Below, one piece after another: positions 13,788 through 43,939 of a stretch of DNA of 64,000 bases (its first letter is position 1; every line of letters begins with the position of its first letter). Below the pieces are notes generated by a model. That model ran no database searches. It saw nothing but the letters and a program-made list of their open reading frames with translations, and was not told the origin of the DNA. The stretch spans positions 62,001-126,000 of the forward strand of contig JAWUZG010001132.1 in assembly GCA_036785705.1 (NCBI GenBank). The letters are read 5' to 3'. Made by a program: the position numbers and the translations under genes. The stretch is from Acanthornis magna. Its lineage: Eukaryota > Chordata > Aves > Passeriformes > Acanthizidae.

Positions 13788-13859
13788 CCCGCGGCCGGGG
13801 GGCACTCCCAGCACCACCAGTGCCACCAGGATGGCCCCAGCTGCCCCCACACGGCCCAT
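13788..13859 (-). CDS. orphan MHC class II B exon 1 (signal peptide), copy A
   Basis: The minus strand encodes MGRVGAAGAILVALVVLGVP then PAAG in 24 codons, ending at a canonical GTGAGC donor. This matches the avian class II B leader exon. No class II exon 2-4 follows on this strand. Instead the purine-rich exon (13,330) and ZNF-1 (12,258) come next, all on the minus strand. ERV-1 begins 336 bp upstream. The near-identical copy B is at 40,149. The leader could be spliced to a zinc-finger transcript or be a promoter remnant. Confidence 0.7.
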
Positions 13860-14191
13860 GCCCAGCGCCGGGCAGGTGCCCACAGCCCCAAAGCAGCCGC
13901 GCTCTGCCCTGGGGGGGGTCCCCAAAGCGGCCCCGCCCCGCGCGGCACTGCGAGCACCAGGCCGGAGCAGTGCGGAGCGCGGGCGAGAGGCATCAGCCGT
14001 GCCCGGGCAGGGCCGGGCCCCGCGGGACAGCTCCCCCCGCACTCGGCCCCAACGGGACAGCGCCCAGCGGGGGGGCCTGGCCTGCCCGCCCCACACCTCC
14101 CCCTCCCCAAATTCCGCTCCCGGCGCCGCTGGAGCCGAGGGGGGCGCAGGTGGGCTCCAGAGGTGCCGGAGACACGTGTCCCCCGCTGCCA
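13860..14191 (-). promoter_or_regulatory. GC-rich 5' flank of class II B exon 1, copy A
   Basis: About 330 bp of CpG-rich DNA, nearly identical to 39,819-40,148 in inverted orientation. I looked for a clear class II S-X-Y box set and do not see one. It is cut off by the ERV-1 insertion. Confidence 0.4.
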
Positions 14192-14195
14192 GTGC
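14192..14195 (+). repeat. 5' target-site duplication of ERV-1
   Basis: GTGC precedes the LTR and is repeated at 22,109-22,112. The ERV-free copy at 39,815-39,818 carries a single GCAC (same bases, other strand). Confidence 0.88.
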
Positions 14196-14762
14196 TGATT
14201 TAGGGGTAGACAGTGATTTATTAGGGGCTGCTCACTAACAACAATGTCTATAGCTTGCTTGACATGTTCTGCGCTTACCAAACAGAAAGAAAGGATGTAG
14301 GGAGGATATTGACCCATTGTTAAGGAGACCAGGCATCCTGGTTTTGGACCCCCAAACCAGCCCATGCCAGCTATAGCACTTGGACTCAGGCCAGGGACCC
14401 AGGGAGCATGCATAGAGAAGCAAGGTGAAGAGTTCAATGTGAGGAAGACTCCTTACTTCATCAGAGAAAGACTCTTTACTTCATCCAAGACCCCCACCCA
14501 TGACCACCAGGCAGCACTGCGCAGGTGCAAGTGTATTTAAATGAACTTCGGACTCATTATAATATGAAGCGGGAATAGATAATGAATATGTATAGGGGCA
14601 TTGTGTAGCTTCGTGCATATGTAACCTGTAACTCAATATAAACCAAGCAAAGCACCACAGACGGCGCGCACGAAATTTAGGGAGCGATCCCTCATGCCTC
14701 CCAGTGCTGGAATAAACATACCTACTTTACAACTTTTGTTGTGGAGTCCTATCCACACCTCA
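14196..14762 (+). repeat. 5' LTR of ERV-1
   Basis: Starts TGATTTAGGGG and ends CCTCA. AATAAA lies at 14,711-14,716, and an A/T-rich TATA-like CAATATAAAC near 14,633. It is identical in length to the 3' LTR. A divergent relative forms a solo LTR near 49,770-50,160. Confidence 0.95.
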
Positions 14763-14765
14763 TTT

Positions 14766-14783
14766 TGGCACCCCAGATGGACG
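14766..14783 (+). other. primer-binding site of ERV-1
   Basis: TGGCACCCCAGATGGACG begins 3 bases after the LTR, where a tRNA primer would anneal. I cannot assign the tRNA with confidence. Confidence 0.5.
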
Positions 14784-15379
14784 GAGTCTGCCTGACTGCA
14801 GGGTCGACTGAGGGGCGAACGTCCAAGGCGCGCCCCGGGATTTTCCTGGTGGAACTCCGCTCCTCGGCCGCCCACTGCGGGGGTAGACAACGACCATCTA
14901 CTAGAGTGGACAAACAGTATGTTTGGGAAGCCACGTGGCCAGGGCTGCTGGTAAGTCACGCAGAGACGTCTGGCACACAATGTAGTCCCTGATTTGGTTA
15001 AAATGCTTGCAAGCAGGCGCACGGCAGAAGTGGGGGGGAGACTGTCTGTGGTTTGCAGTGCTCTCAGCAGCTGTGCAGGGGAAGCTGGCCAGGGGAGGGG
15101 TGGTTTGCTGACCGACCTCAAAGTAAATCAAGTGCTGTTATCACCGGTGTTTGTGTGAGTGTGTTCATGGTGGAATGTGCGTTTGTCTTGGAATTTATAT
15201 TGTAATTTGTTAAGGTTGTAGTTGCAATAAGTGTGTGCAGGGTTGCGATTAAGTGCTTGCTGTGTATGGTATAAGGTGTTGTGATAAAGAGCTGTGTGTT
15301 TGAATTAGGTTGTAAGTTGGTTTGATTTAGTTTTGTCACCGTGGCTAGTCGGAGGGCACTCTCCCTCCGCCAGTGGTTA

Positions 15380-16283
15380 TACCAGAGGAGCACAGCTCCC
15401 GCACCTCTGACCGTGTGTGGGTGTAGGATTGCATTCACGCCGTGGCACAGTTGGTGGGCTTTGACTCCGTGTTGGTCTTGTGGAGTTAGGGATTGTGTGT
15501 GGACTAGAACATCGGGTCCCAGAGAGCTGGATAGTGTTAGAAGGGGATTGGGAAGACACCGTTAAACTTTGTGAGAGTAAAAAGAGCAAGAAGGCTAAGC
15601 ACAGGGAAAGGGCTATAGACAGAGCATACAGAGTGGTTAATTCACTATACAGGAGACGTGGATTGGGTGACACAATATCTAAGTGAACTTTAAGTTATAT
15701 ATTAAAGAGAGGGAAAAAAAAAGAAATATAAAATTTTTAACAGAATGGCAAGGATATGAATGTTTAGTTGTAGTTAGAAGCAGGAATTATTGTGTTATTG
15801 GTATTTTTAGGAATTCGTTGGGCAACCAGGATTGTGAATATAGTGGGTGCACAGCGTGCATGTTTGTGTAGTCCTTGGGAAGTTAAAAGACAGTTGAAGA
15901 GTGCCAGAGAAGGTTTGTGTGGAAGCAGGATAAGAGACAGAGAAGGAAATAAACAAGATGGGAACCGGGCAGAGGAAGGAAATTTCTAAAGCAAGCCCTC
16001 TTGGCTGCATTTTAGGAGAGTATTTAGTAACCGAGAAGAGGGTTACAAACAAGGGATGAGGAAATTAGTAGTGATGGTGGGGAAGGAAGAAAAGGGAAAA
16101 CGTGGGCAAGGACCGCCCAGGCAGGCACCGCCCAGACAGGGCCCACCCTGGTTAGGTAAAGATCAATGTGCAAATTGTAAGAAATTTGGTCATTGGAAAA
16201 ATCAATGCCCAGAAAGGAGACAAGATAACTGGCAAGGAAGAAGAAACCAGGAAGGGGTGGCTGCACATGTGAAAGAAGACTGA
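15380..16283 (+). pseudogene. ERV-1 gag remnant with nucleocapsid zinc knuckle
   Basis: Gag would form the capsid. Only the nucleocapsid is clear: a basic, Pro/Gln-rich stretch followed by a CX2CX4HX4C knuckle (CANCKKFGHWKNQC) at 16,167-16,208. Upstream frames are short and interrupted. No capsid major-homology region is recognisable, so most of matrix and capsid seems deleted or decayed. Confidence 0.7.
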
Positions 16284-16289
16284 AGAAGA

Positions 16290-19200
16290 CCGGGGTACTC
16301 CACCCTAGCGGATCCACTGGTTATAATAAAGCTAGGGGAAAAAGAAAAAGAAGTGGAGTTTTTGGTAGACATGGGGGCAACATATTCAGTTTTGAATAAA
16401 GCCTTAATGCCAGTGGGAGATGATTACATTATGGTAAAAGGGGCAACTGGCCAATCTGAAAAAGCATATTTTTGTAAACCTTTAAAGTATAAACTTGGAA
16501 AGCAATGGGGTATTCATAAGTTTCTCTACATGCCTAAATCTCCAAAAGCCCTTTTGGGCAGAGACTTATTGGAACACTTACAAGCAACCATTATGTTTAA
16601 AGATGGGGAAATTACTCTGGAGGTAAATGATCAACAGTATGTAGAAATTTTAAGTTTAATGTTAACAACCATAGAAGCTGAGGAGGAAATTAGTGAAGAA
16701 ATTAGGAATCAAGTATTCCCTGGAGGATGGGCAACAAATGTACCTGCGAGAGCCAAGAATGCACTTCCAATACAGATCAGGCTCAAGGAAGGGAAACAAC
16801 CAGTTAGGGTTAAACAATACCCACTTAAAAAGGAGGACAAGGAGGGAATTAGCCCAGTGATTGAAAACTTCTTGCAGCTAGGACTACTGAGAGAGTGCAA
16901 ATCTGACTTTAACACCCCCATTTTACCAATCCGCAAGCCTGATGGATCATATTGGGTGGTACAGGACTTACGAGCAGTTAATAAGGTAACTGAGGATCTC
17001 CACCCTGTGGTGTCAAACCCCTACACTTTATTAACTGAGTTAACACCTGAACTAACCTAGTTTACTGTCTCAGATTTGAAAGACGCCTTCTTTTGCCTCC
17101 CTGTCCAAAAAGCCAGCCAGAAAATATTTGCATTCCAATGGGAAAACCCCAAAAGTGGACGCAAAACTCAACTCACTTGGACGGTGTTACCTCAAAGATT
17201 CAAGAATAGCCTCACACTATTCGGAGACCAACTTGCAAAGGATTTGGAGTCTTGGAAAGCCCCACCTGGAGAAGGGCACCAGCTTTGGGACTCCCAGATG
17301 TGAGTAAACCATTCTTTCTGTTTTCTCATGAGAAGCAGGGGATCGCCTTGGGAATACTAGCACAGGACCTGGGCCCGTACCGACAGGCAGTTGCTTATTT
17401 TTCTAAGCAACTAGACAGAGCAGCCAAAGGGTGGCCCGGATGCCTCAGAGCCATCGCAGCAGTGGTTCTGAACATCCAAGAGGCATGCAAATTCACCATG
17501 GGCCAGAAAATGACTGTGCTAGTGTCCCACACAGTATCTGCAGTGATGGAAGTGAAAGGCAGACACTGGCTCTCCCCACAGAGGTTCCTGAGATACCAAG
17601 CCCTCATGGTGGAGCAGGACGACGTGGAGATAGTGGCAACTAATATTGTCAACCCAGCTTCTTTCCTCAGCGGAAACACAGGAGAGCAGGTACACCATGA
17701 CCGCCTGGAGACTATTGAGGCCCCATACTCCAGTCATCCGGATCTGAAGGATACCCCTTTGGACAATGCACAAACCTGGTTTACTGATGGAAGCAGCTAC
17801 GTCATCAGTGGAAAGCGACATGCAGGGTATGCAGTTACCACTTGGAGGAGGTAATAGAATCCAGACCACTCCCAACAAATACCTCTGCACAGAAGGCCGA
17901 AATAAGTGCTCTAACCTGTGCTTTGGAAATGGCAAAAGGAAAGAAGGTAAACATTTATACTGACTCAAAGTATGCATTTGGAGTTGTACATGCACACGGG
18001 GCCATATGGAAGGAAAGGGGACTGTTGAACTCACAAGGAAAGAACATTAAACATGCACAAGAAATAGTACGGCTGTTGGAAGCAGTCCAGCTGCCTGAGA
18101 AGGTAGCAATCATGCACATGAAGGCACACCAGAAAGTGAGCTCAGAATTGGAAGAAGGAAACAAATTGGCAGACAGAGAGGCAAAAGAAACAGCAAAAGG
18201 TGAGGTGACAACTGAAGGGGCTCTAATCTCAGATGGCCAAATTTCCCTAGAAGGTAAGCCAACCTAGAACAAAGAGGATAGAAAACTAATTGAGGATCAG
18301 GATGGGTTATACAATAAAGAGGGTTGGGCTATCACTGCACAAGGGAGGTTGGTCATTCCCTCTCATTTACTTTGGGCACTAGTAACAGAGGAGCACCAAA
18401 AGACACATTAGGGAGTAGATGCCCTACATAAATATCTAACTGAAAAGATTATTGCCAGGAATCTATATGCTACCATCACACAGGTAACTTGTCAGTGTGA
18501 CCTTTGCCTCCACACTAACCCTAAAAACACCCCCAAACCAAAATTGGGCCAAATTAGGAAGGGAAATGGGCCTGGACAGCTGTGGCAAATTGATTTTTCA
18601 GAACTTCCAAGAAAAGGGGGGGAATTGATATTTGTTGGTATTAACAGACACCTTTTCAGGATGGCCAGAAGCTTTCCCCACCAGAACTGCCAAGGCTCGG
18701 CAAGTAACAAAGGGATTGTTGCAGGAGATAATACCATGCTTCGGAGTCCCAGCCACAATATCCTCAGACAGAGGACCACACTTCATTTCAAAGGTGGTAC
18801 AACAAATTAGCTGACATTAGGGCATAAATTGGGAGCTTCACACCTTGTACCACCCACAATCAAGCGGTCAGGTAAAGAAAATGATCAAACAGCAAATTGT
18901 AAGGTTAGGGCAAGAAGCCAATTCAGCCTGGCCCCAGTCTCTTCCACTTGCATTATTACGAATTCGGACTAAACCCAGAACTAAAGAAAAGTTAAGTCCA
19001 TTTGAAATGCTTTATGGGAGACCATATGGAGTACAGAAAGGGTTATCCACCCAAATTGGGGAGGAAACACTGACTACCTATATGGTGGCCCTGAGCAAAC
19101 AGCTTAGGAGAATTGAAAAGCATGTGGCTGGAACTCAAAGTCGAGGTCTAGACAGTCCAGTGCATAATATCCAACCTGGGGATTATACATATATTAAAGT

Positions 19201-19357
19201 CTCTTACAGAGAAAACTTTGGAGCCACAGTAGGAAGGACCATTTCAGGTGCTCCTTACCACTTTCACTGCAGTCAAGATCAAGGAACAGAATGCCTGGAT
19301 TCATCACACTCGGGTGAAAAAGGCTCCAGAAGCCCCTTGGAAAGTGACCCCTGGTGA
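16290..19357 (+). pseudogene. ERV-1 pro-pol remnant (protease, RT, RNase H, integrase)
   Basis: Protease: the flap and core are readable, but the active-site triad reads Asp-Met-Gly (LVDMGAT near 16,365) instead of Asp-Thr/Ser-Gly. Reverse transcriptase: fingers/palm blocks end with TAG at 17,058-17,060 and resume, then a deletion near 17,255-17,280 removes the palm segment that should carry the YXDD catalytic box. Connection and RNase H blocks follow (TWFTDGSS near 17,776; IYTDSKYAFG near 17,957) with a frame change at about 17,850. Integrase core (FSGWPEAF, then SSDRGPHF) and C-terminal part (NIQPGD) run to 19,357 with several stops. The enzyme cannot be made from this copy. Confidence 0.9.
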
Positions 19358-19390
19358 TGATGAACTGAAATTAAAACTCAGCAGAGTAAA

Positions 19391-21504
19391 ATGAAGATGG
19401 TTTGGTGGTGGGGAGTATTAATTCTGAAAGTGAGCACTTGGGAAGTTGCCTATGGACAAGGCCAGAGCAATACTGAATGGCCTTGGTCTCAGGGTTTTGT
19501 CCGGATTACTGGATCCATGGGAAAACATTCTGACACAAAGAGTTTAAATCTATTAACTGTGGTTATGCATGGAAATCAAGTGTATGCAAGGCAAGAATGG
19601 AAAAAACCAAAAGATGTGGCAACTTCAGGGGACTGTAGGGGAAGAAATCAAAATAGGATGTCGAATGATAAATGGAACTACTCATAAAAAAGCAATTCAA
19701 ATTAGTGTCTCTCCTACAGATAAGTATGAAGAGATTTGCATGTACTCAAATGAATTCGATTACTGGAATAATTTTACATTAGTTCAGACTGTCCAAGTGG
19801 TCTGTCTGTGGGCCCATGACACTAATGGGCTTTCATTCAAATTCAAAATAGATGCCATAGCCAAGCCTGTCACAACCTATGCCACCACCCAAGCCCAAAC
19901 CCAAACCACAACACATAAACTTGAGCCCAAAATTGATGAAATTGGTCCCTATGTAGTAAGAAATACAGGCCAACAACAATTGTTGTTTAACCCAGAGTGG
20001 TCCCTCAAACGTGTTGAATTATTGATGCAAGCTAATATCTCTGAAATTCAGCCAGCCTGTTCTCCCCTCCTAAAGACATCCTTCGAGGGCTGGGCAACAT
20101 GGTTACAGAAACAAGAGCCCTTCAGGGGCAGAATGAAGAGGGATTTAACTGGGATGCTAGGAACAGGATTAGGAGTCTTAAATGGGATTGACTCAGAAAT
20201 ATTAATGAATAAATTGACTACTGCAACACGCGATTTGACGAAACTGAGACAACCCCTGCAATCTTCTCTTTTAGCTTTAGGAAACGGCCAGTGGCAAGTT
20301 TCAAAAGTACTGCCAGATTTTGCAAAAGCCAACAACCAGGACCACAAATTGATAATAGCCGCGCTTGGTATGGTCCAGGGTAAGGTGTCCCTAGCCCTTA
20401 GCTGCGTCCAAGCACAACTATGGATGCAATCAGCAGCCTCCTTAATTATAAGAGAAGGAAATTAAGGTGTTTTCCTATTGAAATTCGAAAGGCTGTTTGG
20501 GATAACGCCACTAAGTTAGAAAAGAAGCTCCAATCTTGGTGGACCTTAGTGAACTTCACTTATGACCCAATTACTAATATGGCTACAGCTTTTGTGCTTA
20601 CCATACATAATGCCACAATTTATGTAATCCAACCCATTACTGCTTTAGGATTAAATCATGATGGGGCAGTACTTTACCTCTCTGAACATAGGGCATGGGC
20701 TCGGATGGTCCATAAGAAATGGCAGACCGTAAATTTGGAATCCTGTGTTACATGAGAACAACAAGGGTTTATTTGAGAGAGCAATACAATAGATGCCAAA
20801 GATATTTGTCTGGATGCCGAGCAAGGTATTTGCCACTTTGAAGTTTATCCAGACAATAGTCAAAGGACAGTACTTGTATATATTGGCCAAGGTTGTGTGT
20901 GTTTAAGAACTGTTTGTGTTTCCACAAAAGTAGATAATGAGAATGTAACCCTAAATGTTAAGAATTATTCTAATTTCTGCATTTGTAACTTTGTAAAAAT
21001 TACCGGATGTGACTTTTCCTATTTGGCACCAGTTGTGTCCCATCAATTGACACAGTCTAATTACACAATGTATCACAAATTATCACCCACACCTATTGGG
21101 ATGAACCTCACCTTGGTGAAACAATTAGTGAAGCATCAGGACTCAATTGAAATCCTGAAGGAAGTTCACAAAAATGGGAAGAAAACTTTAATAACCATTC
21201 ACCATGATACCGAGGAAATAAGTAGAATCCTACAAAGAATGAGACAAGATGCAGATCATCACTGGTGGGATGTGCTTTTTGGATGGTCACCCACTGCAAC
21301 TGGTATTTAAAATACGTTATGTCACCCCATAGCTGTTTTACTAATCTTGGTAGGTATCAGCCTTGTATTATCTACTATATTACTTGTTTGGAATTACAGA
21401 ATGCTGAAGAGGTTATCCATTTTAACCACTTTATCTAATGTACATGGAAAAGTATTAAGGGATGCCCACCATAAAAGATTACTGGAACAAGAATCTACTT
21501 ATTA
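19391..21504 (+). pseudogene. ERV-1 envelope gene remnant
   Basis: A frame starting near 19,391 carries a hydrophobic leader. After a frame change near 19,600 it reads a surface subunit with N-glycosylation motifs, a furin-type RMKR at 20,130-20,141, and a Gly/Leu-rich fusion-peptide-like stretch just after it. It is then broken by TAA at 20,463, TGA at 20,753 and further stops, and TAA at 21,308. A strongly hydrophobic membrane anchor lies near 21,322-21,395, followed by a short basic tail ending at 21,504. The protein cannot be made intact. Confidence 0.75.
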
Positions 21505-21528
21505 GTAAAAGAATTTACTAACTTTATA

Positions 21529-21541
21529 GAAAAGGGGGGAT
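21529..21541 (+). other. polypurine tract of ERV-1
   Basis: An A-run and six G immediately precede the 3' LTR start TGATTTAGG. This is the plus-strand primer position of retroviruses. Confidence 0.85.
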
Positions 21542-22108
21542 TGATTTAGGGGTAGATAGTGATTTATTAGGGGCTGCTCACTAACAACAATGTATATAGC
21601 TTGCTTGACATGTTCTGCGCTTACCAAACAGAAAGAAAGGATGCAGGGAGGATATTGACCCATTGTTAAGGAGACCAGGCATCCTGGTTTTGGACCCCCA
21701 AACCAGCCCATGCCAGCTATAGTGCTTGGACTCAGGCCAGGGACCCAGGGAGCATGCATAGAGAAGCAAGGTGAAGAGTTCAATGTGAGGAAGACTCCTT
21801 ACTTCATCAGAGAAAGACTCTTTACTTCATCCAAGACCCCCACCCATGACCACCAGGCAGCACTGCGCAGGTGCAAGTGTATTTAAATGAACTTCGGACT
21901 CATTATAATACGAAGTGGGAATAGATAATGAATATGTATAGGGGCATTGTGTAGCTTCGTGCATATGTAACCTGTAACTCAATATAAACCAAGCAAAGCA
22001 CCACAGACGGCGCGCACGAAATTTAGGGAGCGATCCCTCATGCCTCCCAGTGCTGCAATAAACACACCTACTTTAGAACTTTTGTTGTGGACTCCTATCC
22101 GCGCCTCA
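21542..22108 (+). repeat. 3' LTR of ERV-1
   Basis: 567 bp, 13 single-base differences from the 5' LTR, no indels. Ends CCTCA and is followed by the target duplication GTGC at 22,109-22,112. Confidence 0.95.
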
Positions 22109-22612
22109 GTGCCACCCCACGAAGGATTAGGGGTACCCCAAAACTCCCTCACAGGTGGCCGATACCCCACAAGCCCCGAAGGAATGGGGTCCCCCCGCCT
22201 TCATCACCCCCAACCTTCGACTGCCTCATCCCAGGCCCCAGCCCACCCATCCCCCTCCCCCACACTTCATCCCACACCCCAATCCACATCCCACCCTGCC
22301 CGCGCCCCATCCCACCCCATCCCACTTCTCCCGGCAGCCGCCACCGGGAGCCCCCAAAAACCCGCGTGCCGGCGACTCCCCAATATCCGCCCAGGGCATT
22401 TGCGACTCACATTTGGAGTCCTGCAACATCCAAACATCCGCCCCGCCCCCCCCCCCCCCGCAATAAAACCAAACAAAGCCTCCCAAGATCCACCGAAGGT
22501 ATTTGGGGCTCGGTTCTGGAGTCCTACAAGGTCCAAAAATCCGCCCCCCCTCCCAAAAAGAACCCCACGCACCGCCCAAGATCTTTGGGCCGAGCTCCCC
22601 CTGCCCGGTCAC

Positions 22613-22845
22613 CTGCGGGATGCGGGGGGCGATGCTCCCGGGGCTGAGGGCTGCGGACAAAGAGAGCGATGCACGCACGTGGCAGCTCCTTTTCCTGCTT
22701 CTCTTTCTGCTCCACCCCCTTGATGCCTCGTCTTCCTCCCGTCCCTCCTTTTCCATCTGTCCTCCCCACCCGCCCTTCCTCTTCCGTGACTCTCCTCCGC
22801 CTCTCCTGCTCCTCCTCCTCCTGTTCTTTGGCATTCCCATCCCGG
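22613..22845 (-). promoter_or_regulatory. purine-rich 5' exon candidate, block A
   Basis: The minus strand is rich in AGGAGG and AAAGAGAAGC and ends CCCGCAG|GTGACCGGGCAGG (donor at 22,612). An open frame with many Arg/Lys/Glu crosses it, but that follows from composition. A poly-C run (about 15 C) interrupts the intron side near 22,445-22,460. Confidence 0.4.
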
Positions 22846-23039
22846 CTGTGTCTGACATCACCCCTGGGGCCATCCCGTGCTGGGGAAAGCTGCAGGGCTG
22901 CAGGGGCAGCCGGGAATTTTGTTTTCCAATTCTCTGGGGTGAAAAGGAAGCGCTGTGAAATCCGTCAGGAAAGGAGAAGTGGCAAGTGATGGAAATGGAC
23001 ACCACTTTGGACTCCGTTTATCCCTCTGGGTTGCAAAAG

Positions 23040-24389
23040 CTGACAGACCCCGAGCGCCGGCGGACACCCGTCCCCGCCGTCACGTCCCAAGGGATCAGAG
23101 GTGCGGCTGGTGGGGCTGGAAGCTCCGTCCAGCAGCTCCGCTCCCGCCCCCCAAAGCTCGGGCTGGAGGGTGGGGTGTGGGACACAGCCCCGTGCTGGGG
23201 GCAGAGCTGCTGCTGGAGCCATCGCTGTGTCCAGGGCATCCTTTGTGGGCTTCGTGCAGCTCCAAGCTCCCGAGGGCTCCCCGAGGCTTTCTGGGGCTGT
23301 TCCTCCTCCCCAAATCTGTTGGGTTTAATGCCCGAGTGCGGCACCCCGTGCCCTGTGGCAGCAGCCGGTGCCGGGCCACAGCCCCGGGAGCCGAGCTAAT
23401 GCCCGGCCGTGCCCAGGAGGGACTGAGGGGAGGGGACTTCAGAAGGCTCCCCCGCGCCCCTCGCTGCACACGAAAAGGTATTTTAGTGCATGGGAGCGAT
23501 TATCCGGGGTTTCTGGGCTCTGTGGGGCCGCGGCGGCGGCAGCGGGACCGGCGGGGCCCGGCCCGTGGGGGCGGCCGGGGTTGGAAAGTGCGCGGCGGCC
23601 CCAGCGCGGTGCGTGAGGGCTGAGCGGAGCTGGGTGGGAACACCCCGCTCGTCTCCGCCGCTCCAAGCCGCTTCCCCGGCTCCGGCTGTCGCAGCCGCTC
23701 AGCCTCGGCGCGGTCCCGCGGGGTCGCTGCTCGTCGCGACACTGGAGGGGTCGATCCGAGCCGCGCCCCGCCCGTCCCTCGCTGCGGCTCTTTCGGTGAC
23801 ACGGAGCGGCCGAAACCCCCGGTGCTGCCCCGACGGTCCCTCGGTACAGCTTTTTTAGTCGCAGGCAGCGGCCACTGCCGGTGCTGTTCTTTCATAATTT
23901 TTTATTTGAATCTCTATATTTTATCCTATTCGCACCTCCTATCCCACGCCCCTCCGCTGCGGCTCTTTCACCGCCGCCGCTCGTCGCCGCTCTCTCGGTG
24001 CAGCTCTTCACTGACACGGCCCGGCCGAGACGCCACTCGGTGCGGCTCTTTGATTGGATTTTCTTCTTTTCTCTGTCTTTTCTGTCGTTCGCACCTCGCC
24101 CGTCCCGCGGAGCGACTCCTTCAGGGAGCCGGGGCGGCACAAAGGCCTCGGGGCGGCTCCAAAGGGCACCGCCCGCGGCCGCTCCCCGAGGCCTCCCCGC
24201 TGCTCGCGGGGATCGGACACCGCCGGCGGCCCCGGCCCCTTCTTGTTCTTCTTGCTCCTGCCGGGATTCAGCCCCCGCCGCCGCCCGGCTCCTTCTGCCG
24301 GCCCTGCCCAGCACGAAGCGGCGCTGCCGCTGACGGGGCCGGAGCGCGGCTGCGACACGACTGCCCCGCGCCTCGGGACCGGGCCGAGG
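23040..24389. promoter_or_regulatory. GC-rich CpG-dense core of block A
   Basis: About 1.3 kb with very high CpG density, GGGGCGGGGC-type boxes and a short A/T-rich island (near 23,890-23,935) inside. The element TGCGGCTCTTTC repeats several times near 23,780, 23,958 and 24,040. Long open frames on both strands result from the composition. It lies upstream of the purine-rich exon on the minus strand, so a CpG-island promoter is plausible. No transcript is proven. Confidence 0.45.
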
Positions 24390-24404
24390 AGTGACCGCAC
24401 GGGT

Positions 24405-24630
24405 GGGGAGAGACCCCCGCTGGACAGGGCAGGGACTGAGCCCATGGGAGGGACCCCCGGCTGGACAAGGCAGGGACTGAGCCCATGGGAGGGACCCCCC
24501 GCTGGACAGGGCAGGGACTGAGCCCATGGGAGGGACCCCCCGCTGGACAGGGCAGGGACTGAGCCCATGGGAGGGACCCCCGCTGGACAGGGCAGGGATT
24601 GACCCCATGGGAGGGATCCCACGCCGGAGC
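24405..24630 (+). repeat. 38-40-bp tandem repeat
   Basis: Five to six nearly perfect copies of a unit containing GCTGGACAGGGCAGGGACTG and GAGCCCATGGGAGGGACCC. It begins just outside block A and is absent at the edge of block B. Confidence 0.9.
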
Positions 24631-25760
24631 AGGGGAAGAATTCCTGCCCCTGAGGGGAAGCAGCGGCAGGAACTGACCGTGACTCCCCCATCCCTTCTCC
24701 CTGCACCGCCGGGCAGAGCACGGACGGAGCCGGGGATAAAGTGAAGTCCGGGAAGGAGACAGAGATCGGGAGAAGGTGTTTTTTTCCAGGATTTATTTTA
24801 CTCCTCTCTCTCCTGTTCTGATTTGGTGAGTCCCAACTCCCATTCATTTCCCCACGTCGGGGCTGTTGTGCCCGTGATGGCGATCTCTGAGTGACCTCTC
24901 CCTGCCCTTATCCCGACTCACGAGGACTCGGATTTGTTTCAATTCCGTGGAATTAACGGAGATTTGGGGCAGCTGGAGCAAAGCAGCTGAAACCACAGGG
25001 GCTTGAGAGGGACTAAAGCAGGGCAGGAGTTGAGGCTGCCCCGAGGAAACTCTTCCAACACGAACCTTCGTGGGGTCTTTCTACAGGAATTTTGATGAAT
25101 GTTTACATTCATCGTTACAAATCAGAGTGAAAAGTGGAGCTGAGCTTTCAGCTTGAAGGAATCCAACGTGTGCTCTGGGACCTCTGCAATCTCAAGTTGT
25201 TACTTGGATACTTTAGTTTCGGAAATATTCAGCCCCTCAGCAGCAATGTCTCTCTCATCTCACCGTTTTCTAGCTCAGACCCAGCTCGGAAATCGGACAA
25301 GAATCTCCAAGTCCCATCAGAGCAAGCTGCGCCGTTTCTTTTTTTCATAGTAATGTTATGCTATTCATTGTATATTCTATATTAATTTTATTTCCGTTTT
25401 TATAATTTTGTTTTCCAAATTTATTTTTTTTTAAATTTTTTTATTCCATCGTGGTTTTGCTCTACTTCCGCCACACATAACCTTTTTTGACCGCCCGGAG
25501 GTTCGTGGTGAGTTGCTGTCTCACCGGTTCTCCCCTGGAAACCAATGAAATTAATCAAAAGAATGATGAATTTTGGAACTCTTTCCGCTGCTGTTTGCAG
25601 AAGGTCCCCGGAGGAGACGGGGCCGGGAGGGGGTCCCGGTGCCGGGGGCAGTCAGCGGTCGCTGGGTGGATCCCGGTGGCGCAGGTTGGGAGACACGAAA
25701 GTGACCGAGGGAGCGCGGGGGGCGGGGGAAGAGGGGGTGCAAGGGATTATCGGTGCAGGA
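24631..25760. other. unassigned DNA between two minisatellites
   Basis: No exon is recognisable. 25,330-25,470 is A/T-rich with long T runs. A G-rich stretch starts at 25,600. Open frames are short. Confidence 0.35.
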
Positions 25761-26315: not shown

Positions 26316-27118
26316 TTAATCCACAGACTCCAGCGGTTTATGTCCAAAAAGGAGACAGAGGAATCCCATAGCTTTATTCGAATAAAGGGAGAGGTCATGG
26401 GCATTTCCCATGAGGTCTCTCAAATTGCTAGAGGACGCAGCCTCTTTTTATCCTAATTTCCCAGCCACAGATTCCCTTTTTCTTTCTCCATTGGCTGAGG
26501 TACTTGAGAGGTACAGACTTTCCGAATCGCCTAATACAGACCCCCTTCTAATGTACATCCCCCCCCACCCCCCTTGTTTTTTCTTTGTGTCTCTGTTCTT
26601 TTTCTCTAAGTCCAGGGATTTAGCACGGCCTTGCGTGAGTAACAGTCTGTGTCAATTACTGGAATTCCTATGGAATTTATGCTTCCTCCCATTGCTTCTT
26701 TCACCTATCAGTATCTGGCCTTATCTACCAGCAGGCCTCACAGTTTGTTTGTAAAGACATCTCCCTCTTATTCCTTACAACCCCTCCTTATCTTAACAGT
26801 AATTGTCTTTACAAACCTTAGTTATCATTAACTTAATTTTCTTTTCCTGGGTCTTTTTATTTTTCTTTCTTTTTCTACAATTATTTCCAGTGACATGATT
26901 TTCTGTCCTTTTGTAGCCATTTCTGGATCCGTAGGCATGGCTACTGCCTGCATCCCTTGATCACATGCTGAATGAGCTGCGCTAAGCAAGGTATCATGCA
27001 TGGTAAACAGATGAGAATTGCTGTAGCACATAACAGGAAAAAGAGCTGTAGCTGTCTGGTTGGTTATTATTTTTTCCTAGGACTAAAAAAAATTTAAAAA
27101 ACCAAACTAAAACAAAAA
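26316..27118 (-). repeat. 3' LTR of a second retrovirus (ERV-2)
   Basis: Lies just beyond the polypurine tract (minus strand AGAGGGGGAAGT, near 27,120-27,135). The AATAAA on the minus strand is near 26,375. The part at 26,541-26,765 is repeated in the fragment at 48,865-49,760. Outer ends are approximate. Confidence 0.65.
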
Positions 27119-27200
27119 CTACTTCCCCCTCTAGCCTAAACTTAACTGACAATATAAAAGTAAGATTATTAAGAAAAACATTCCAGTCTAACTACCTAAT

Positions 27201-29518
27201 CTAATTCTCACGTTGTCTTCCGCACTGTCTGTGGTGAATGAAGGCATAGAAATGGCTTAACATAAAGAAAACAAAGACAGCAAGGATTGGCCTCCCAGTG
27301 ACTGGAGATCGGAGGGGAGGGATGCCCACACAGACTATTTCAGCAGACAGTCTGTGGGTAGGCACACGAGGCTTCCTCCAATGTCGACGCACTGGCTGCT
27401 GCTCCAGTCCACTCCTGTGGAGTGTCAGTCCTGGCTTCCCATCCTTCTCCTCCAGCTGAGATGTCCAAATCTCCAGGGTTTTAGAGGCCTTGACCCGAGT
27501 GTGATGGGTCCACCTGTGGTCAGCTGTCCTGACGGCTGTTTCTGTGGTCAGGAACACCTGGAATGGTCCAGGCCACTTCACCACCAATGGTGCTCCTTTC
27601 CATGCGTTAAATAGGACCCAATCTCCCGGCTGGATGTTGTGAACAGTAAAGTCCAAAGGCAGGGTCTGTGCCAGCCGAGGTTCCTGTTGAAGAGATTTCA
27701 CAAGAGACAGTATCCAGGCCACATGTTGTTTTAAATACACATCACTTATTTGCACACACCCCGTCCCCCCCACTAGGCCGAGAATTACAAGGGCAAGGAA
27801 TTCCAAACATCATTTCAAAGGGAGATAATTGAATATCTCCTCTGGGTCTGGCCCTTATTCTAGCCAAAGCCAATGGTAAAAGCCATACCCATGGCATCTT
27901 AGTTTCCATCACCAGCTTCAAAAGGCGTTTATTTCTCCATTCATTCTTTCTACCCGACCTGAACTCTGGGGGTTTCAGGGGGTATGGAGGTTCCATTTTA
28001 TTCCTAAAGCAGCCATAACTCCTTGAAGGATGGTTCCTGTGAAATGAGTACCCCTATCTGAGTCTATTGCTTCCACAATCCCTTATCTTGGAATTATTTG
28101 TTCCAAAAATACCTTAATAACTGATCCTGTAGTTGCTGAAACATTTGGGAATGCTTCTGGCCACTCTGTTAGCTGACATACTATTACCAGAAGATATTTA
28201 AACCTTGCCACTCGGGGCATTTTAGTAAAATCTTCCAGACATCTTTGGAAGGGATGCACAGACCAAGGCCTCCCGCCCCTGGCAGTTTTATTTGTAACCT
28301 TGTTATTAGTTTTAGCACAAATCGAACAACCCTCAATAGCTTGTTTTGCCAGATCAAAAAGACCCACAGTAGCACGCATTTTGAGGAAGGCTTCTGCCAA
28401 TCCTCGAGAACCCCAATGACTCCCTTCATGGAGTTGTTTCAATATTGTAAGGCCAGAACATTTGGTATCCATTGTTTACCATTCTTTGTAAACCAATTAT
28501 CCTCTCTTTCCTCTGTCCCACTCTTTTTAATTATCTCTAGCTCCTCTGGTGGAAAAGACAGTTTCTCTGGCAGTGGTGGGGCTACTGGGAGCAAAGAGAG
28601 GATCTTAGAGGTTTCTGGCAGCAGTGCAGCTTTCCGAGTCTCTTCAGCCAGTTGATTACCTATTGTTTCTTCTGAGCACCCTGCCTGGTGTCCCCTAACA
28701 TGTATTATTGCCACACCTTTTGGCAAATTCATTGCCTCCAATAGGCGAGAAATTAAGCTCTCATGAGTTAACGTTTTTCCCCTGCAGGTTAACAAACCTA
28801 ATTTCCCAAATGCATATATCACCCCATATGCATATTTAGAATCAGTAAATATATTCTCTATCCTGCCCCGTTACAGTTTGCAGGCTCTCACAAGCACATA
28901 CATCTCTGCTGTTTGAGCTGATCATGTGGGCGGCAATCTCCCCCTTCTTTTAATTCTCTTCTATTAATGCAAATTGTTTCTCTTCTACTACCTTTGAAGA
29001 GCCACCAACAAACACATTCTCTCCCCTGGGCCAGGGAGTGTCCCACAAATCTTCCCTAGCCCAGCTCTGGAGATCTATCACCTGAAGGCAGTCATGAGTT
29101 TCTCCCCAGTCCCACTCTCCAGGGCCGCCCAAACAGGAGGTGGGGTCAAATCTTCCTCGTTTCTCAATTCCAAATTCTCCCGTTCCACCAAACAAAATAC
29201 ACACTGTAATAACCGAGCGCTGGTCATCCACTTAGAGGCTCTTTCAGTTAACAAAGCTTCCACTTGGTGTCAAACTTTAACAATTAGATATTTTCCTATT
29301 GTCAGCCCTCGGGCCCCAGTTACTATCAAGGCCATGGCTGTACAACCTTGCAGACAATGCAGCCAGCCTCTGGCTACATTCTGAGACATTCTGAGAAAAT
29401 GAGTAGCCTCTGGCCACTGGATCTAGCAACTTAGAAAAATAAGCAACAGGCCGTTGTGCTCCCCAAAGCATGGGGGAACAACACTTTTCTTGAAAGCTGC
29501 TTGCAAAATCCAAAGCAG
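27201..29518 (-). pseudogene. ERV-2 pol remnant (RT connection, RNase H, integrase)
   Basis: Minus strand, 5' to 3': RT connection block with QRPVAYFSKLLDPVA (29,513-29,277); RNase H with FVGGSS and IIHVRGHQAG, the first catalytic Asp region altered (29,231-28,439); integrase zinc-binding and core with CSICAKTNNK and LTEWPEAFPN (28,472-28,083); and C-terminal part with NIQPGDWVLF and GPFQVFLTTETAVRT (27,996-27,201). Several frame changes separate the blocks. No env lies between the integrase end and the polypurine tract, and everything 5' of the connection domain is missing. Confidence 0.9.
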
Positions 29519-34639: not shown

Positions 34640-35400
34640 AAAGCAGAATAAAACAGCAGTGTAAGGCACAGCACAAAGGAAGCACCGGGCTGCTCACTTG
34701 AAAAATTGCCCTTGCAGTGCCAATCCAGGAGTGCTCCTATTATGATCACATAATTAAGGTTCTTCAAAATACCTCTGCCCAAATTAAGGCTCAAACAAGA
34801 CCATATGCCAGTCAATAGTATGGGTTTTATATGATAATAAATATGAGAGAGAGAGAAGAAAAGAGAAAGGGAGAAGCAGGAGAATAGGTGGGACAGAAAG
34901 ACAGTGACAAAGAAAGAATAAAAGAATATCGCCATCTGTGGATCCCAATGATGTTGTGTTGATCCTCTCCAGCTTGGTCTTCCTGGTGGTGATGATCCCC
35001 CCAAAAGCACAGAATCCCATGGGTTAATACACACTCAGACCAGGTGGCAATGTCCAGGCATGTCCCCCTGAGGGAAGGGACAGTCCCTTGCAGAAGACTC
35101 TGCTTGCATCACGTGCAGTCCTGTGGTACAAGGCCGAGCACTTTGGGGAGTCTGTGATGGATTATGACACCCCCTCAGCTGCCTCTCACGTGAATGTCCC
35201 ATGGATGTGGCCTGTGGGCTTGGGGGTTCCACAGCTGGGCCAGTTTGTGTAACGGAGGATGAGTGTTTATTGTCTCTCAGCAGAGGTTATGCCACTGCAC
35301 CAAAACCTCCTCCCCCACCCCCGGGTGGGGGACGTGTGTGTAAACCTGGCTTTGTTAGCTGTGCTCTCCCCCACCCCAAACTCAGCCGGGGATGATTCTC
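34640..35400. other. unassigned, LTR-like DNA with a GA-rich tract
   Basis: 34,840-34,930 is dominated by GAGA and GAAA. The surrounding A/T-rich sequence differs from the GC-rich unit on each side, as LTR insertions do, but I could not find paired ends. No gene is seen. Confidence 0.3.
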
Positions 35401-36242
35401 AGTGCAGCTGGTGGCTTTGGCCTTTTTGAATGCATTCTCTTCCTTCAGCTTGAGATGACTGAACAATAGGTTTCCCTTTATCTGATCTCAGCAGTTTGAC
35501 TTTCAGTCCAAAGTCCCAGTCAGGTATCTTCAAGAGAGGCTTCTTTGGTTGTAGTTTCTTTATACAGTTTTTTGTTATGATTGATATAAATGAGTTTGCA
35601 AGCTGAAATTTTAGCACCATAATATTGACCATTTATTAGTAGAGCAAAGGCAAAAACAGCGCTGGGCGCTTACCAGTTTTGCCAGAGGCGCAATCCATTC
35701 ATTTTACTGTGAGCTTAAGCACTTTCTTTAACTGTTACATATTCATTAAGCCGAGAAGGTAATTTACTCTTCACTCCCCCCCTCCGATCCCTGCCCCCTT
35801 CTGCCAGCGCTGCGCCTGTCTTGGAGTTTTGGACTCCCTGGATTGCCTCAGAACTGATGGCCGAAATCCTCCCGTCTATGTTTCCTCAATTCCAACTTAA
35901 TTTGTAGTTCACAATTCCTTTTGGGAGGTGTGAGTCAAAACAACAGACTTCCTGGGATGCCTATGGTTATCTTCTTTGTTTCTTTAAGATGTCTGGGTCC
36001 CCGGCTCTGTGGTTTATCAACTTAAAAGACATTTATTACCATATATTTATTACAATGTTTTCTAACATATTGTAACTATTTCGAAGTTACAATTTACCCT
36101 AACCTTGTTTCTACTTAATTATATTTTTATCTTAACATTATTTTTTTTACCGGTCCATTATCACTTGTAAATGTTAAATTCATATCTGCGAAAGCCAGCA
36201 TTTATCATTCACTCATTTATCACAGTTCCTACCGCTGCTTCC
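35401..36242 (-). repeat. candidate LTR or other insertion, A/T-rich
   Basis: A/T-rich, with AATAAA on the minus strand near 35,632 beside an LTR-like GGCAAAAACAGCGCTGGGCG stretch. It ends where block B begins at 36,243. Class and ends are uncertain; no coding region is present. Confidence 0.35.
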
Positions 36243-38208
36243 CCTCGGCCCGGTCCCGAGGCGCGGGGCAGTCGTGTCGCAGCCGCGCTCCGGCCCCGTC
36301 AGCGGCAGCGCCGCTCCGTGCCGGGCAGGGCCGGCAGAAGGAGCCGGGCGGCGGCGGGGGCTGAATCCCGGCAGGAGCAAGAAGAACAAGAAGGGGCCGG
36401 GGCCGCCGGCGGTGTCCGATCCCCGCGAGCAGCGGGGAGGCCTCGGGGAGCGGCCGCGGGCGGGGCCCTTTGGAGCCACCCCGAGGGCTTTGTGCCGCCC
36501 CGGGTGCCTGAAGGAGTCGCTCCGCGGGACGGGCGAGGTGCGAACGACAGAAAAGACAGAGAAAAGAAGAAAATCCAATCAAAGAGCCACACCGAGGGGC
36601 GTCTCGGCCGGGCCGTGTCAGTGAAGAGCTGCACCGAGAGAGCGGCGACGAGCGGCGGCGGTGAAAGAGCCGCAGCGGAGGGGCGTGGGATGGGAGGTGC
36701 AAATAGAATAAAATATAGAGATTCAAATAAAAAATTATGAAAGAACAGCACCGGCAGTGGCCGCTGCCTGCGACTGAAACCGCTGCACCGAGGGACCGTC
36801 GGGGCGGCACCGGGGGTTTTCGGGTCCTCCGTGTCACCGAAAGAGCCGCAGGGAGGGACGGGCGGGGCGCGGCTCGGATCGACCCCTCCAGTGTCGCGAC
36901 GAGCGGCGACCCCGCGGGACCGCGCCGGGGCCGAGCGGCGGCGGCAGTCGGAGCCGGGGAAGCGGCTTGGAGCGGCGGAGACGAGCGGGGTGCTCCCACC
37001 CAGCCCCGCTCAGCCCTCGGGCACCGGGGGGGTTCCGGGGGTTGTTCCCACCCAGCTCCGCTCAGCCCTCACGCACCGCGCTGGGGCCGCCGCGCACTTT
37101 TCAGCCCCGGCCGCCCCCACGGGCCGGGCCCCGCCAGTCCCGCCTCCGCCGCCGTGGCCCCACGGAGCCCAGAAACCCCAGGAAAGCGCTCCCATGCACT
37201 GAAAAACCTTTTCAGCGCAGCGAGGTCTGCGTGGGGTGCCTTATGAACTCCCCTCCCCTCAGTCCCTCCTGGGCACGGCCGGGCATTAGTTCGGCTCCCG
37301 GGGCTGTGGCCCGGCCCCGGCTGCTGCCGCAGGGCACGGGGTGCCGCACTCGGGCATTAAACCCAACAGCTTTGGCGAGGAGGGACAGCCCCAGAAAGCC
37401 TCGGGGAGCCCTCGGCAGCTTGGAGCTGCACGAGGGCCAGAAAGGATGCCCTGGACACAGCGATGGCCCCAGCAGCAGCTCTGCCTCCCCAGCACGGGGC
37501 TGTGTCCCAGACCCCACGGTCCAGCCCGAGGTTTGGGGGGTGGGAGCGGAGCTGCTGGACGGAGCTTCCAGCCCCGCCAGCCAGAGCTCGGATCCCTTGG
37601 GACGTGAAGTCGGTGACTGGTGTCTGCCGGCGCTCGGGGTCTGTCAGCTTTTGCAATCCACAGGGATAAACTGAGTCCAAAGTGGTGTTGATTTCCATCA
37701 ATTGCCATTTCTCCTTTCTTGTCCCTGACGGATTTCACAGCGTTTCCTTTCTCCCCAGAGATTTGGAAAACTAAATTCCCGGCTGCCCCTGCATCCCTGC
37801 AGCTTCCACAGCTCCAGCCTCCTCTCTCCTCTCCCGTTTCCTCTTCTCCAGTCTGTCCCTCTTGTCCCTGCCGGCTCGGAGGAAGGAGATTCACCCCCGG
37901 CACCCCCTGCCTCCTCCTTCTGTCCCGTTTGGCGGACTTGGTGCCTCTGGAGCTGCCTGCCCGCGCAGCCGGACCCGCCCTGCGGCCGCTTAGCCATGGA
38001 GTGCAGGGAATGAATGGCAGGGATTAATGGGCTGGGCTGGCCCTCGCCGGGTGCCCGGTGCCACCAGAGCCGCTCTGTCACTCTCCTCACAGGTGCAGGA
38101 CACAGAACACAGCTGGAAAGGCTCATGGGCTGGGCTAAGGGCAGGGAGATGTCACTCACTGTTCACTGTCAGGGGCACAACAGACCCGAGTTGAGGAATT
38201 TAATGGAA

Positions 38209-38214
38209 TTTATT
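38209..38214 (-). promoter_or_regulatory. poly(A) signal, minus strand
   Basis: AATAAA on the minus strand, about 260 bp downstream of the candidate coiled-coil terminal exon at 38,641-38,471. Confidence 0.35.
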
Positions 38215-38470
38215 TCCAAGTAAATCATAGTAGGAGAAAAAGAACAAAAAGAAACACTAAAAAATCACCTTCCCCAGCGCTCCGTCCTTCCCAGGCTCTC
38301 TGCCTCCACCTGCAGTCTCTCCCCTCCCCTCTGCATGGGAAATTTGTCCCAACCACGAACTTTGCTTTTGCCTCATCCCGGCATCTCTTCCCGGAGAGGA
38401 AGAACTTTCTCCAGCAGAGATTCAGAGAGTGAGAGCCTTGAGGCTCAGGGTGTTTCTCCTGCAGCTCCTT

Positions 38471-38641
38471 CTAGGTCTCCTCTTCCCGTGCTGGGTCTCC
38501 TGCACCACAGAACTCTGCCAGCTGCAGCTTTGCAAACGGCAGCTCAAGGTCTGCATGTTCCTGAACAGTTTGCTCGAGATCCCTGGTGGCTGCCTCCAAT
38601 CCGTTCTTCTTGTCTTCCCCCTTTGCACGGAACCAATGGAT
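38471..38641 (-). CDS. candidate terminal exon with a coiled coil, block-B-specific
   Basis: Minus strand: acceptor GGGGCCATCAG, then 56 codons to TAG at 38,473-38,471. The frame starts IHWFRAKGEDKKNG and continues with a heptad-like LEAATRDLEQTVQEHADL. It lies in the 1.2-kb piece present only in block B and is followed by a poly(A) signal. No upstream exon is identified, and I do not recognise the family. A chance open frame is possible. Confidence 0.3.
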   Translation of the reverse strand: MHWFRAKGEDKKNGLEAATRDLEQTVQEHADLELPFAKLQLAEFCGAGDPAREEET

Positions 38642-39059
38642 CTGATGGCCCCTGGGCAGGGCCTGGCACAGAAGGTGGAACCTGGGTCCTGCTGCAGCAG
38701 CGCTGGGGGAGCTCCAGGACTCGCTCTGGCCGCTGGGGCAGCCACAACACAGCCCGTTCCCAGGGAGGAGCCCAGGGCTCCGTGGGGCTCTGCAGGACCT
38801 TGTCCCTGGGGCTCGTCTGGATCAGCCCGGGCAGCTCCGTTGCAGTTGGCTTCGTTTGTGTCCCTGCTTCCCCTGGCACAGCACCTGCCCAGCGCCGAGG
38901 GGACAGCAGTGGGAGCGGGGCAGTTTGGGGTGAGGTTCAGTGTGTGTGCCCGGGATAAATCTCAAATCCTTCCCTAAGGAGCAGCGAGGGCTGACAGAGC
39001 ACAGGATGCTGCTGCTGCTGAGCACGGGATGGCCCCGGGGGTGATGTCAGACAAAGCTG

Positions 39060-39288
39060 GGATGGGAGTGCCAAAGAACAGGAGGAGGAGGAGAAGGCGG
39101 AGGAGCAGTTTAGGAGGGACACAGGAGGAAGAGGAAGTGCGGGAGGCGGAGGGAGAAGGAGCGGGAAGAAGAAGAGGGATAGAGGAGCAGAAAGAGAAGC
39201 AGCAAAAGGAGCTACCACGTGCGTACATCGCACTCTGTGTCCGCAACCCTCGGCCCCGGGAGCATCGCCCCCCCGGGGCATCCCGCAG
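39060..39288 (+). promoter_or_regulatory. purine-rich 5' exon candidate, block B
   Basis: GGAGGAGGAGAAGG-type sequence ends CCCGCAG|GTGACGGGGC (donor at 39,289). It is the counterpart of 22,845-22,613. It lies upstream of class II B exon 1 copy B on the same strand. Confidence 0.4.
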
Positions 39289-39561
39289 GTGACGGGGCAG
39301 GGGGAGCTCGCCCCAAATATCTTGGGCGGTGCGTGGGGTTGTTTTTGGGAGGGGGGAATTTTGGACCCTGTAGGACTCCAGCACCGAGTCCCAAATGTCT
39401 TTGTTGGTTGCTGGGAGGGATTTTTTTTCGGGGGGGAGGGCGCGGATGTTTGGATCTTGAAGGACTCCAAGAGAGAGTCGTAAATGCCCCTTGGGGGAAT
39501 ATTGGGGTGTCCCCTAGACGGGAGTTTTTTGGGGGGTCCCGATGGTGGCTGCCAGGAAAAA

Positions 39562-39620
39562 TGGGATGGGATGGGATGGGATGGGATGGGATGGGATGGG
39601 ATGGGATGGGATGGGATGGA
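39562..39620 (+). repeat. (ATGGG)n pentanucleotide microsatellite
   Basis: About eleven perfect copies. The corresponding place in block A (near 22,310) has only two to three imperfect copies, so it expanded after duplication. Confidence 0.93.
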
Positions 39621-40148
39621 GCTCGGGAAGGGTGGGATGTGGATTGGGGTGTGGGATGAAGTCTGGGGGAGGGGGATGGGTGGGATGGGGCCTGGGATGA
39701 GGCAGCTGAAGGGTCGGGGTGATGAGGCCGGGTGGAACACCACTCCTTAGGCTCTTCCGGGGTATCCGCCACCTCTGGGGGAGTTTTGGGGTTCCCCTAA
39801 TCCTTCCGGGGGTGGCACTGGCAGCGGGGGACACGTGGCTCCAGCACCTCGGGCCCCACCTGCGCTCCCCACGCCCCCAGCACCCCCGGGAGCGGAATTT
39901 GGGAAGGGGGAGGTGTGGGGCGGGCAGGCCGGGCCCCCCCGCTGGGCGCTGTCCCGTTGGGGCCGAGTGCGGGGGGAGCTGTCCCGCGGGGCCCGGCCCT
40001 GCCCGGGCACGGCTGATGCCGCCCGCCCGCGCTCCGCACTGCTCCGGCCTGGTGCTCGCAGTGCCGCGCGGGGCGGGGCCGCTTTGGGGACCCCCCCAGG
40101 GCAGAGCGCGGCTGCTTTGGGGCTGTGGGCACCAGCTCGGCGCTGGGC

Positions 40149-40217
40149 ATGGGCCGTGTGGGGGCAGCTGGGGCCGTCCTGGTGGCACTGGTGGTGCTGG
40201 GGTCCTCCCGGCCGCAG
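40149..40217 (+). CDS. orphan MHC class II B exon 1 (signal peptide), copy B
   Basis: Reads MGRVGAAGAVLVALVVLGSS, the same leader as copy A with a changed end. The canonical donor of copy A is lost: an inserted stretch with GGCAAGGAGCTCTGGGA replaces it, leaving CCGCAG|GCAAGG, which could act only as a rare GC-type donor. No class II exon 2-4 follows before the olfactory-receptor fragment. Probably a non-functional leader. Confidence 0.65.
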
Positions 40218-41967: not shown

Positions 41968-42479
41968 ATCAGCTCTGTCCCACGTGGAGCCTTCAGAGTG
42001 TGTCTGACAGGGCCCAGAGCTGCTGGTCTCAGAGCATCTTGGCAATAAAGTGGGATCTCCCCAGGGCACTGACTGAAGCTTTGACTCTTTATCCAAGCTC
42101 ATGTCAATTTTAGCCAAGAGAATTTCCCCCCAAAAGGCTCTGTAGCTCCATGGATTGTGCAGAGGGAAAGTGCTGACATCAGCAGCTGCTAAAGGCCAAG
42201 AGTTTGATTTGAATAAAGCCACTGTTGTGTGGTGACAGTGGAGATGGTGACAGGTGACTGAGGTCCATAACCAGGACTGTTCCACGTGGCACAGGGCACA
42301 GAATGTGCTCCAGGAGAAGAATCTGGAGCTGCCTGGACAAGGCAGAGTATCTACAGGCCTGTGTGTGCTTGGGCTGGGCAGTGACTGGAGCCCCAGCAAG
42401 GCACAGATCAGCCAAGGTGGAGACCCCCAGAGGGAAAGAACTAAATGCAGCACCTGCAAGGAAACCCAGAGGGAGACAG

Positions 42480-43108: not shown

Positions 43109-43299
43109 CTGTTTCCTCAAGGACAGGGAAAGGTGACAGTGAGGGGAGGCAGCTCCTGCCCCGTCAGCGTCTGGAGGAGAGGCTGCAGGGATACAGTGCT
43201 GACAGTGCCATCAGCCCTTCTGTCCCCATGCTCCGCTCAGCCCCCCATGCCTGTGCCTGTCCCTGCCACGCTCTAGTCGTGGAACCGCCCAGCAACTCC

Positions 43300-43640: not shown

Positions 43641-43939
43641 AAAAGCCACCCAAATTGTGCCAGCCACCTCCCAAAGCCGGCCCAACTTCACCCCCTTCAT
43701 GGCTTCCAAGTGCCCCGAAACTTGTGCATGGGTGTGGGGGGAAGGGGGGAAGCAGCAGGACCCCTCCTCATGTCTCAACAGCTCTGTCCCCAGCTGGGAG
43801 GAGGAGCAGGGTCAGGGGTCTGGGTGTCCCCACAAATTTCCCCCATACCCATGACACAGCCAGACACTTCGGAGGCTGCTTCAGGCCTTATTGCCTACCT
43901 GCATCCCAGTACAGAGCACAAAATCCACCTGCAGGCCAC

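What the first reader, a model, noticed from the sequence alone, without database searches (positions are those of the whole stretch)
14192..22112. Dated ERV insertion with its empty site preserved in the same window
ERV-1 is flanked by GTGC. The inverted duplicate at 39,790-39,840 has the same flanks (CCGCTGCCAG before; CACCCC and AAGGATTAGGGG after, other strand) with a single GTGC and no insertion. The insertion therefore came after the A/B duplication, or only one copy received it. LTR divergence (13 of 567 by my count) gives a minimum age order between events.
Basis: seen in the sequence. Interest (0 to 1): 0.8.

Follow-up and report, generated by a model that had tools for sequence, protein, structure and literature searches.

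The report
Songbird retrovirus with paralogous empty site
A broken retrovirus copy, in what looks like songbird DNA, sits in one of two mirrored copies of a stretch of the genome while the other copy still shows the uninterrupted site, so the virus most likely arrived after the duplication; this is an ordinary kind of event.

Summary
A 7,913-bp provirus (14196-22108) has two 567-bp TG...CA LTRs differing at 13 of 567 sites, flanked by GTGC on both sides. Joining the flanks with one GTGC gives a sequence that aligns without a gap at the junction to the inverted paralogue: one 621-column block, 91.8% identical, crosses the site (junction shown). Arm B keeps a single GTGC at 39815-39818. Within 100 bp of the site the arms differ at 29 of 199 columns against 13 of 567 between the LTRs (Fisher p 2e-9; whole arms 226 of 2660, p 1.5e-8), so the insertion came after the arms split. 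Caveat: arm divergence is very uneven (p 2e-14) and its least diverged block (27 of 749) cannot be told from the LTR value (p 0.20). The element is a defective gammaretrovirus-like ERV of a family widespread in birds; the closest named relatives are from New Caledonian crow. Published bird rates give roughly 3-6 My (1.6-9.7 My with sampling error). Comparing paralogous copies is an established approach with a close songbird precedent (PMC2946954). Real, correctly read, ordinary; low interest.

The parts
14192..14195 (+). left copy of target site duplication GTGC
   Evidence: read directly
14196..14762 (+). 5' LTR, 567 bp, TG...CA
   Evidence: LTR alignment, ends checked
14766..14783 (+). probable primer-binding site, TGG starting three bases after the LTR
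   Evidence: sequence after the LTR; likeness to an arginine (CCU) tRNA is recalled, from no call
15990..16280 (+). gag remnant with zinc knuckle
   Evidence: Pfam PF00098, E 1.1e-4, above its cut-off; no capsid domain in the 8 of 10 gag-region pieces submitted
16284..17057 (+). protease and start of reverse transcriptase, ended by a stop within RT
   Evidence: Pfam PF00077, E 3e-11; 82% identical over 95% to a Corvus moneduloides protein; homology runs on past the stop to 17285
17061..18264 (+). rest of RT (shortened, frame changes), connection and RNase H
   Evidence: PF00078 (E 1.7e-5, below its cut-off), PF17917, PF00075; tblastn frames; RNase H against solved structures
18412..19379 (+). 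integrase pieces in two frames
   Evidence: recognised by eye in the translations, recalled motifs; no Pfam hit, no solved-structure hit for 18821-19354; 19191-19379 matches part of P0024, a swallow protein listed with PF18697
19415..20920 (+). env gene in three segments that alternate between two frames (broken); a further open piece runs to 21307
   Evidence: tblastn with relatives P0010-P0012, family search, translation
21542..22108 (+). 3' LTR, preceded by a purine-rich tract
22109..22112 (+). right copy of target site duplication GTGC
   Evidence: read directly
13791..14195 (+). arm A, left of insertion; weak homology continues to about 13568
   Evidence: 94.3% to 40215-39815 minus strand; extension
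22109..24389 (+). arm A, right of insertion
   Evidence: blastn blocks of 79.7-95.9% to 39820-36243 minus strand
36243..40215 (-). arm B, inverted paralogue carrying the empty site
39815..39818 (-). empty site in arm B: single GTGC
   Evidence: read directly, alignment

Best explanation
A stretch of what appears to be songbird DNA was duplicated in inverted orientation. Later a gammaretrovirus-like element integrated into arm A, duplicating the 4 bp GTGC; arm B was never hit and keeps the pre-integration sequence. Gag is mostly missing, RT is interrupted and shortened, integrase and env are split between frames. Shown: LTR pair, 4-bp duplication, paralogous empty site, divergence order at the site, broken frames. 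Inferred: the age of about 3-6 My, the songbird host, and that the copy can no longer make its own proteins. Whether some genes were already broken at integration is not known.
For: LTR pair 13/567 apart; GTGC on both sides and once in B; alignment through the junction, 621-column block at 91.8% with no gap at the junction; arms around the site 29/199 apart against LTR 13/567 (p 2e-9), whole arms 226/2660 (p 1.5e-8); the same with transversions only (4/567 against 112/2660, p 4.7e-6) and without CpG transitions (9/567 against 188/2660, p 3.4e-8); protease and RNase H; bird env and pol relatives.
Against: Arm divergence is uneven (27/749 to 87/557; chi-square p 2e-14), so exchange between arms or constraint has acted; the block 23641-24389 does not differ from the LTRs (p 0.20) and the left 401 columns differ modestly (p 0.02). 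Arms are much richer in G+C (0.65-0.78) than the provirus (0.44), so their mutation rates may differ. The rest of the genome could not be searched for third copies or other alleles (7 genome-search runs unanswered: 8, 9, 20, 43, 53, 64, 66).
Confidence: 0.93

Rival explanations
1. The provirus was present or segregating before the duplication, and B's empty site was put back later by gene conversion from an empty allele or a third paralogue.
For: Arm divergence is a mosaic: 9 differences in 297 columns at 13791-14090, then 28 in 198 in the next two 100-column bins, which span the site. Exchange among copies is plausible in a region with several internal duplications.
Confidence: 0.05
2. The window is misassembled or merges haplotypes, so that the A/B pair or the placement of the provirus is an assembly product.
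For: A duplicated, repeat-rich region is hard to assemble, and no reads were at hand (general knowledge).
Against: Arms differ at 226 of 2660 columns and by seven gaps of 5 bp or more, including one of 1,210 bp, which is high for alleles; the junctions carry a proper target duplication and LTR ends.
Confidence: 0.02

Closest known systems
Avian class I (gammaretrovirus-like) endogenous retroviruses
   Same: LTRs TG...CA, 4-bp target duplication, MLV-type protease, RT and RNase H; protease-RT piece 82% and env piece 75% identical to New Caledonian crow proteins. Beta- and gammaretrovirus-like ERVs are the most abundant in birds and more numerous in the three oscine songbirds of PMC4272516 (passages read).
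   Different: This copy is defective and gag-poor. Bird genomes could not be searched, so whether this very locus is on record is unknown; the LTR had no match in phage records and one pol piece none in viral contigs.
Zebra finch duplicated endogenous hepadnavirus pair eZHBVl / eZHBVl*, with a 618-bp solo LTR drawn in eZHBVl* (PMC2946954, passages read)
   Same: An LTR element in one of two segmental copies, and use of the distance between duplicates with bird neutral rates for timing.
   Different: There a solo LTR of another family with a 6-bp duplication; that the other copy is empty is implied by the figure legend, not stated in the passages. Here a two-LTR provirus with a 4-bp duplication.
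Polymorphic LTR-element insertions in crows (PMC7341801, passages read)
   Same: Recent LTR-element activity in songbirds, with one insertion dated from its LTR.
   Different: The empty state there is an allele in the population, not a paralogue; the element is ERVK.

Membership tests
Gammaretrovirus-like (class I) ERV | paired LTRs with TG...CA ends | tested here: met
   567-bp LTRs, 13 differences, no gaps
Gammaretrovirus-like (class I) ERV | 4-bp target site duplication (recalled as usual for the group) | tested here: met
   GTGC twice around the provirus, once in the empty site
Gammaretrovirus-like (class I) ERV | pol most similar to the MLV group | tested here: met
   RNase H piece: the nine best of 81 matched sequences (60 shown), E 4e-36 to 5e-25, are named p80 RT/RNase H, XMRV or RNase H; the next, an HIV-1 construct, has 4.5e-10. 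That the p80 and RNase H chains are of MLV/XMRV is partly recalled.
Gammaretrovirus-like (class I) ERV | gammaretroviral capsid (Gag_p30) domain | tested here: not met
   no match in the 8 of 10 gag-region pieces submitted; the region is short, so this copy seems to have lost most of gag. This lowers the claim for gag only; pol carries the classification.
Gammaretrovirus-like (class I) ERV | env of a known gammaretroviral family | tested here: inconclusive
   env pieces hit no retroviral Pfam family; one piece has 63 relatives at E <= 1e-3 of 637 candidates, and those with an organism name are birds
Gammaretrovirus-like (class I) ERV | integrase | tested here: inconclusive
   integrase-like pieces recognised by eye, but no Pfam hit and no solved-structure hit for one piece; part of P0024 matches 19191-19379
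Gammaretrovirus-like (class I) ERV | primer-binding site complementary to a host tRNA | not testable with these tools
   TGG-initial site present; no host tRNA set at hand
Paralogous empty site | second copy with matching flanks, one target sequence and no LTR remnant | tested here: met

The most novel reading that the evidence does not exclude
The two arms exchange sequence by conversion in tracts away from the site (1-3% apart in places), while the block holding the provirus has not been homogenised, so that the 8-kb insertion now helps to keep that block distinct in the two arms.
Probability: 0.1. Interest if true: 0.3.

Novelty: new member of a known kind. Interest (0 to 1): 0.12.

Why it matters
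It is a clean worked example: one window holds the filled site, the empty site and the duplication between them, so the order of two events follows without a second genome. It adds no new principle; it could serve as a calibration point for comparing duplication age with ERV age in this bird lineage.

Tried and rejected
A 6-bp duplication (CAGTGC) was rejected because the right-hand CA is the LTR end. The thought that integrase was missing (no Pfam hit) was set aside after reading the translations; this rests on recalled motifs, and a solved-structure search with one piece found nothing. A coding explanation for the least diverged block 23641-24389 was looked for: no Pfam match in the four overlapping arm-A ORFs submitted (23624-24391, 23800-24330, 23895-24797, 24011-24907) or the one in arm B (36232-37068), and differences spread over codon phases 10, 7, 10; not supported. 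The idea that the insertion stopped conversion and so caused the local divergence does not fit by itself, since divergence since insertion should then be near 2.3%, not 14.6%. The LTR had no match in phage records; a pol piece had none confirmed in viral contigs; no Rfam family was found in the window. Of 7 paper searches, three found no paper with all terms. Only passages of four papers were read (PMC5006616, PMC4272516, PMC7341801, PMC4988538) and passages of PMC2946954 twice.

Full report
Observation. The provirus spans 14196-22108 (7,913 bp). Its LTRs are 14196-14762 and 21542-22108, each 567 bp, begin TG, end CA and differ at 13 positions without gaps: 9 transitions (4 of them in CpG context) and 4 transversions; K2P 0.0233. 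GTGC lies on both sides.

Empty site. The minus strand near 39.8 kb reads through CCGCTGCCA-GTGC-CACCCC with one GTGC, at 39818-39815. Flanks of A joined with one GTGC align to B in one block of 621 columns at 91.8% across the junction. In the 300-base alignment the junction has no gap; the nearest are single-base gaps about 40 bases to the left and 75 to the right. LTR-LTR recombination would leave a solo LTR, so B's state is most simply the never-hit state (established knowledge of ERV loss).

The duplication. Arm A (13791-14195 and 22109-24389) matches arm B (40215-36243, minus strand) in blocks of 79.7-95.9% identity. Of 2660 aligned columns 226 differ (K2P 0.090). By block: 21/401 left of the site, 23/188 right of it, then 87/557, 61/754 and 27/749 further right; the differences between blocks are far beyond chance (chi-square 70, 4 d.f., p 2e-14). 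B holds 1,210 bp that A lacks (39017-37808), and A holds a minisatellite of 41-bp period near the right end (24406-24634). Weak homology goes on to the left to about 13568/40450; to the right, apart from about 24 bases beyond the minisatellite, none was found.

Order of events. Within 100 bp of the site the arms differ at 29 of 199 columns against 13 of 567 for the LTRs (p 2e-9); within 50, 150 and 200 bp the counts are 10/99, 34/299 and 38/399, each more diverged than the LTRs (p 7e-4 or less); whole arms p 1.5e-8. Transversions only give p 4.7e-6, and leaving out CpG transitions p 3.4e-8. Against this, the block 23641-24389 (27/749) does not differ from the LTRs (p 0.20), the left 401 columns differ modestly (p 0.02), and the 199 columns at 13891-14090 have only 3 differences. 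Conversion between the arms or constraint could explain the low blocks; either makes the duplication look younger there, not older near the site.

Age. Bird neutral rates of 2e-9 to 3.9e-9 per site per year are quoted in PMC2946954 (passages read). They give 3.0-5.8 My for the LTRs (1.6-9.7 My over the 95% interval of 13/567) and 11.6-22.6 My for the arm mean. These are rough: arms have 0.65-0.78 G+C against 0.44 in the provirus, rates in this lineage are not known, and conversion would bias both.

The element. Protease (PF00077), RT connection, RNase H, part of the RT palm (PF00078, below its cut-off) and a zinc knuckle were found. The RNase H piece best matches p80/XMRV-type chains. No capsid domain was found in the 8 of 10 gag-region pieces submitted. 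RT holds a stop and, at one frame change, lacks about 130 residues relative to one relative (P0131) but about 33 relative to another (P0119); integrase-like pieces lie in two frames, and env in three segments that alternate between two frames. Integrase was recognised by eye; Pfam and the solved structures gave no match for it. The best named relatives are from Corvus moneduloides: 82% over 95% of the protease-RT piece (447 proteins at E <= 1e-3 among 922 candidates, best 120 listed) and 75% over 87% of the env piece (63 of 637 candidates). The host is therefore most likely a songbird; no record of the window itself was reached.

Context. Four ORFs hold C2H2 zinc-finger arrays and one an olfactory-receptor match; another holds an SRCR match. 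In chicken, olfactory-receptor and SRCR genes lie together on chromosome 16 and segregate with MHC-Y, and three zinc-finger genes are listed among the MHC-B genes (PMC4988538, passages read; that the table is of MHC-B is my reading of its section). That this window is the corresponding songbird region is a guess.

Precedent. In zebra finch a duplicated endogenous hepadnavirus fragment carries a solo LTR in the copy eZHBVl*, and the distance between the copies was used for timing (PMC2946954). The approach here is thus not new.

Verdict. The finding is real and correctly read; it is an ordinary ERV insertion with a convenient control beside it.

Noticed in passing
35246-36222 (minus strand): Probable solo LTR of 977 bp in arm B, TG...CA with AACTG on both sides (36223-36227, 35241-35245), lying right where detectable A/B homology ends. 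AACTG occurs 5 times in 35200-36260, so the match alone is weak. Whether the LTR has to do with the breakpoint is open.
   Followed up: partly
about 26400-29200 (minus strand): A second, truncated gammaretrovirus-like fragment: PF18697 (MLV integrase C-terminal domain) at 27204-27809, E 7e-6 but below its curated cut-off; sequence read. Limits are approximate and its age was not tested.
   Followed up: partly
37808-39017: 1,210 bp in arm B that arm A lacks; by eye no target duplication, so insertion in B and deletion in A are both possible.
   Followed up: partly
24406-24634: G+C-rich minisatellite of period 41, 5.6 copies; chicken chromosome 16 has a 41-nucleotide G+C-rich repeat, PO41 (PMC4988538). 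The sequences were not compared.
   Followed up: no
42276-45427 and 60961-64000: Another inverted duplication, 83-90% identical, with an SRCR match at 42182-43093.
   Followed up: no
15000-15499: Strongly G/T-rich leader/gag region of the provirus (GC skew 0.36, AT skew -0.25).
   Followed up: no
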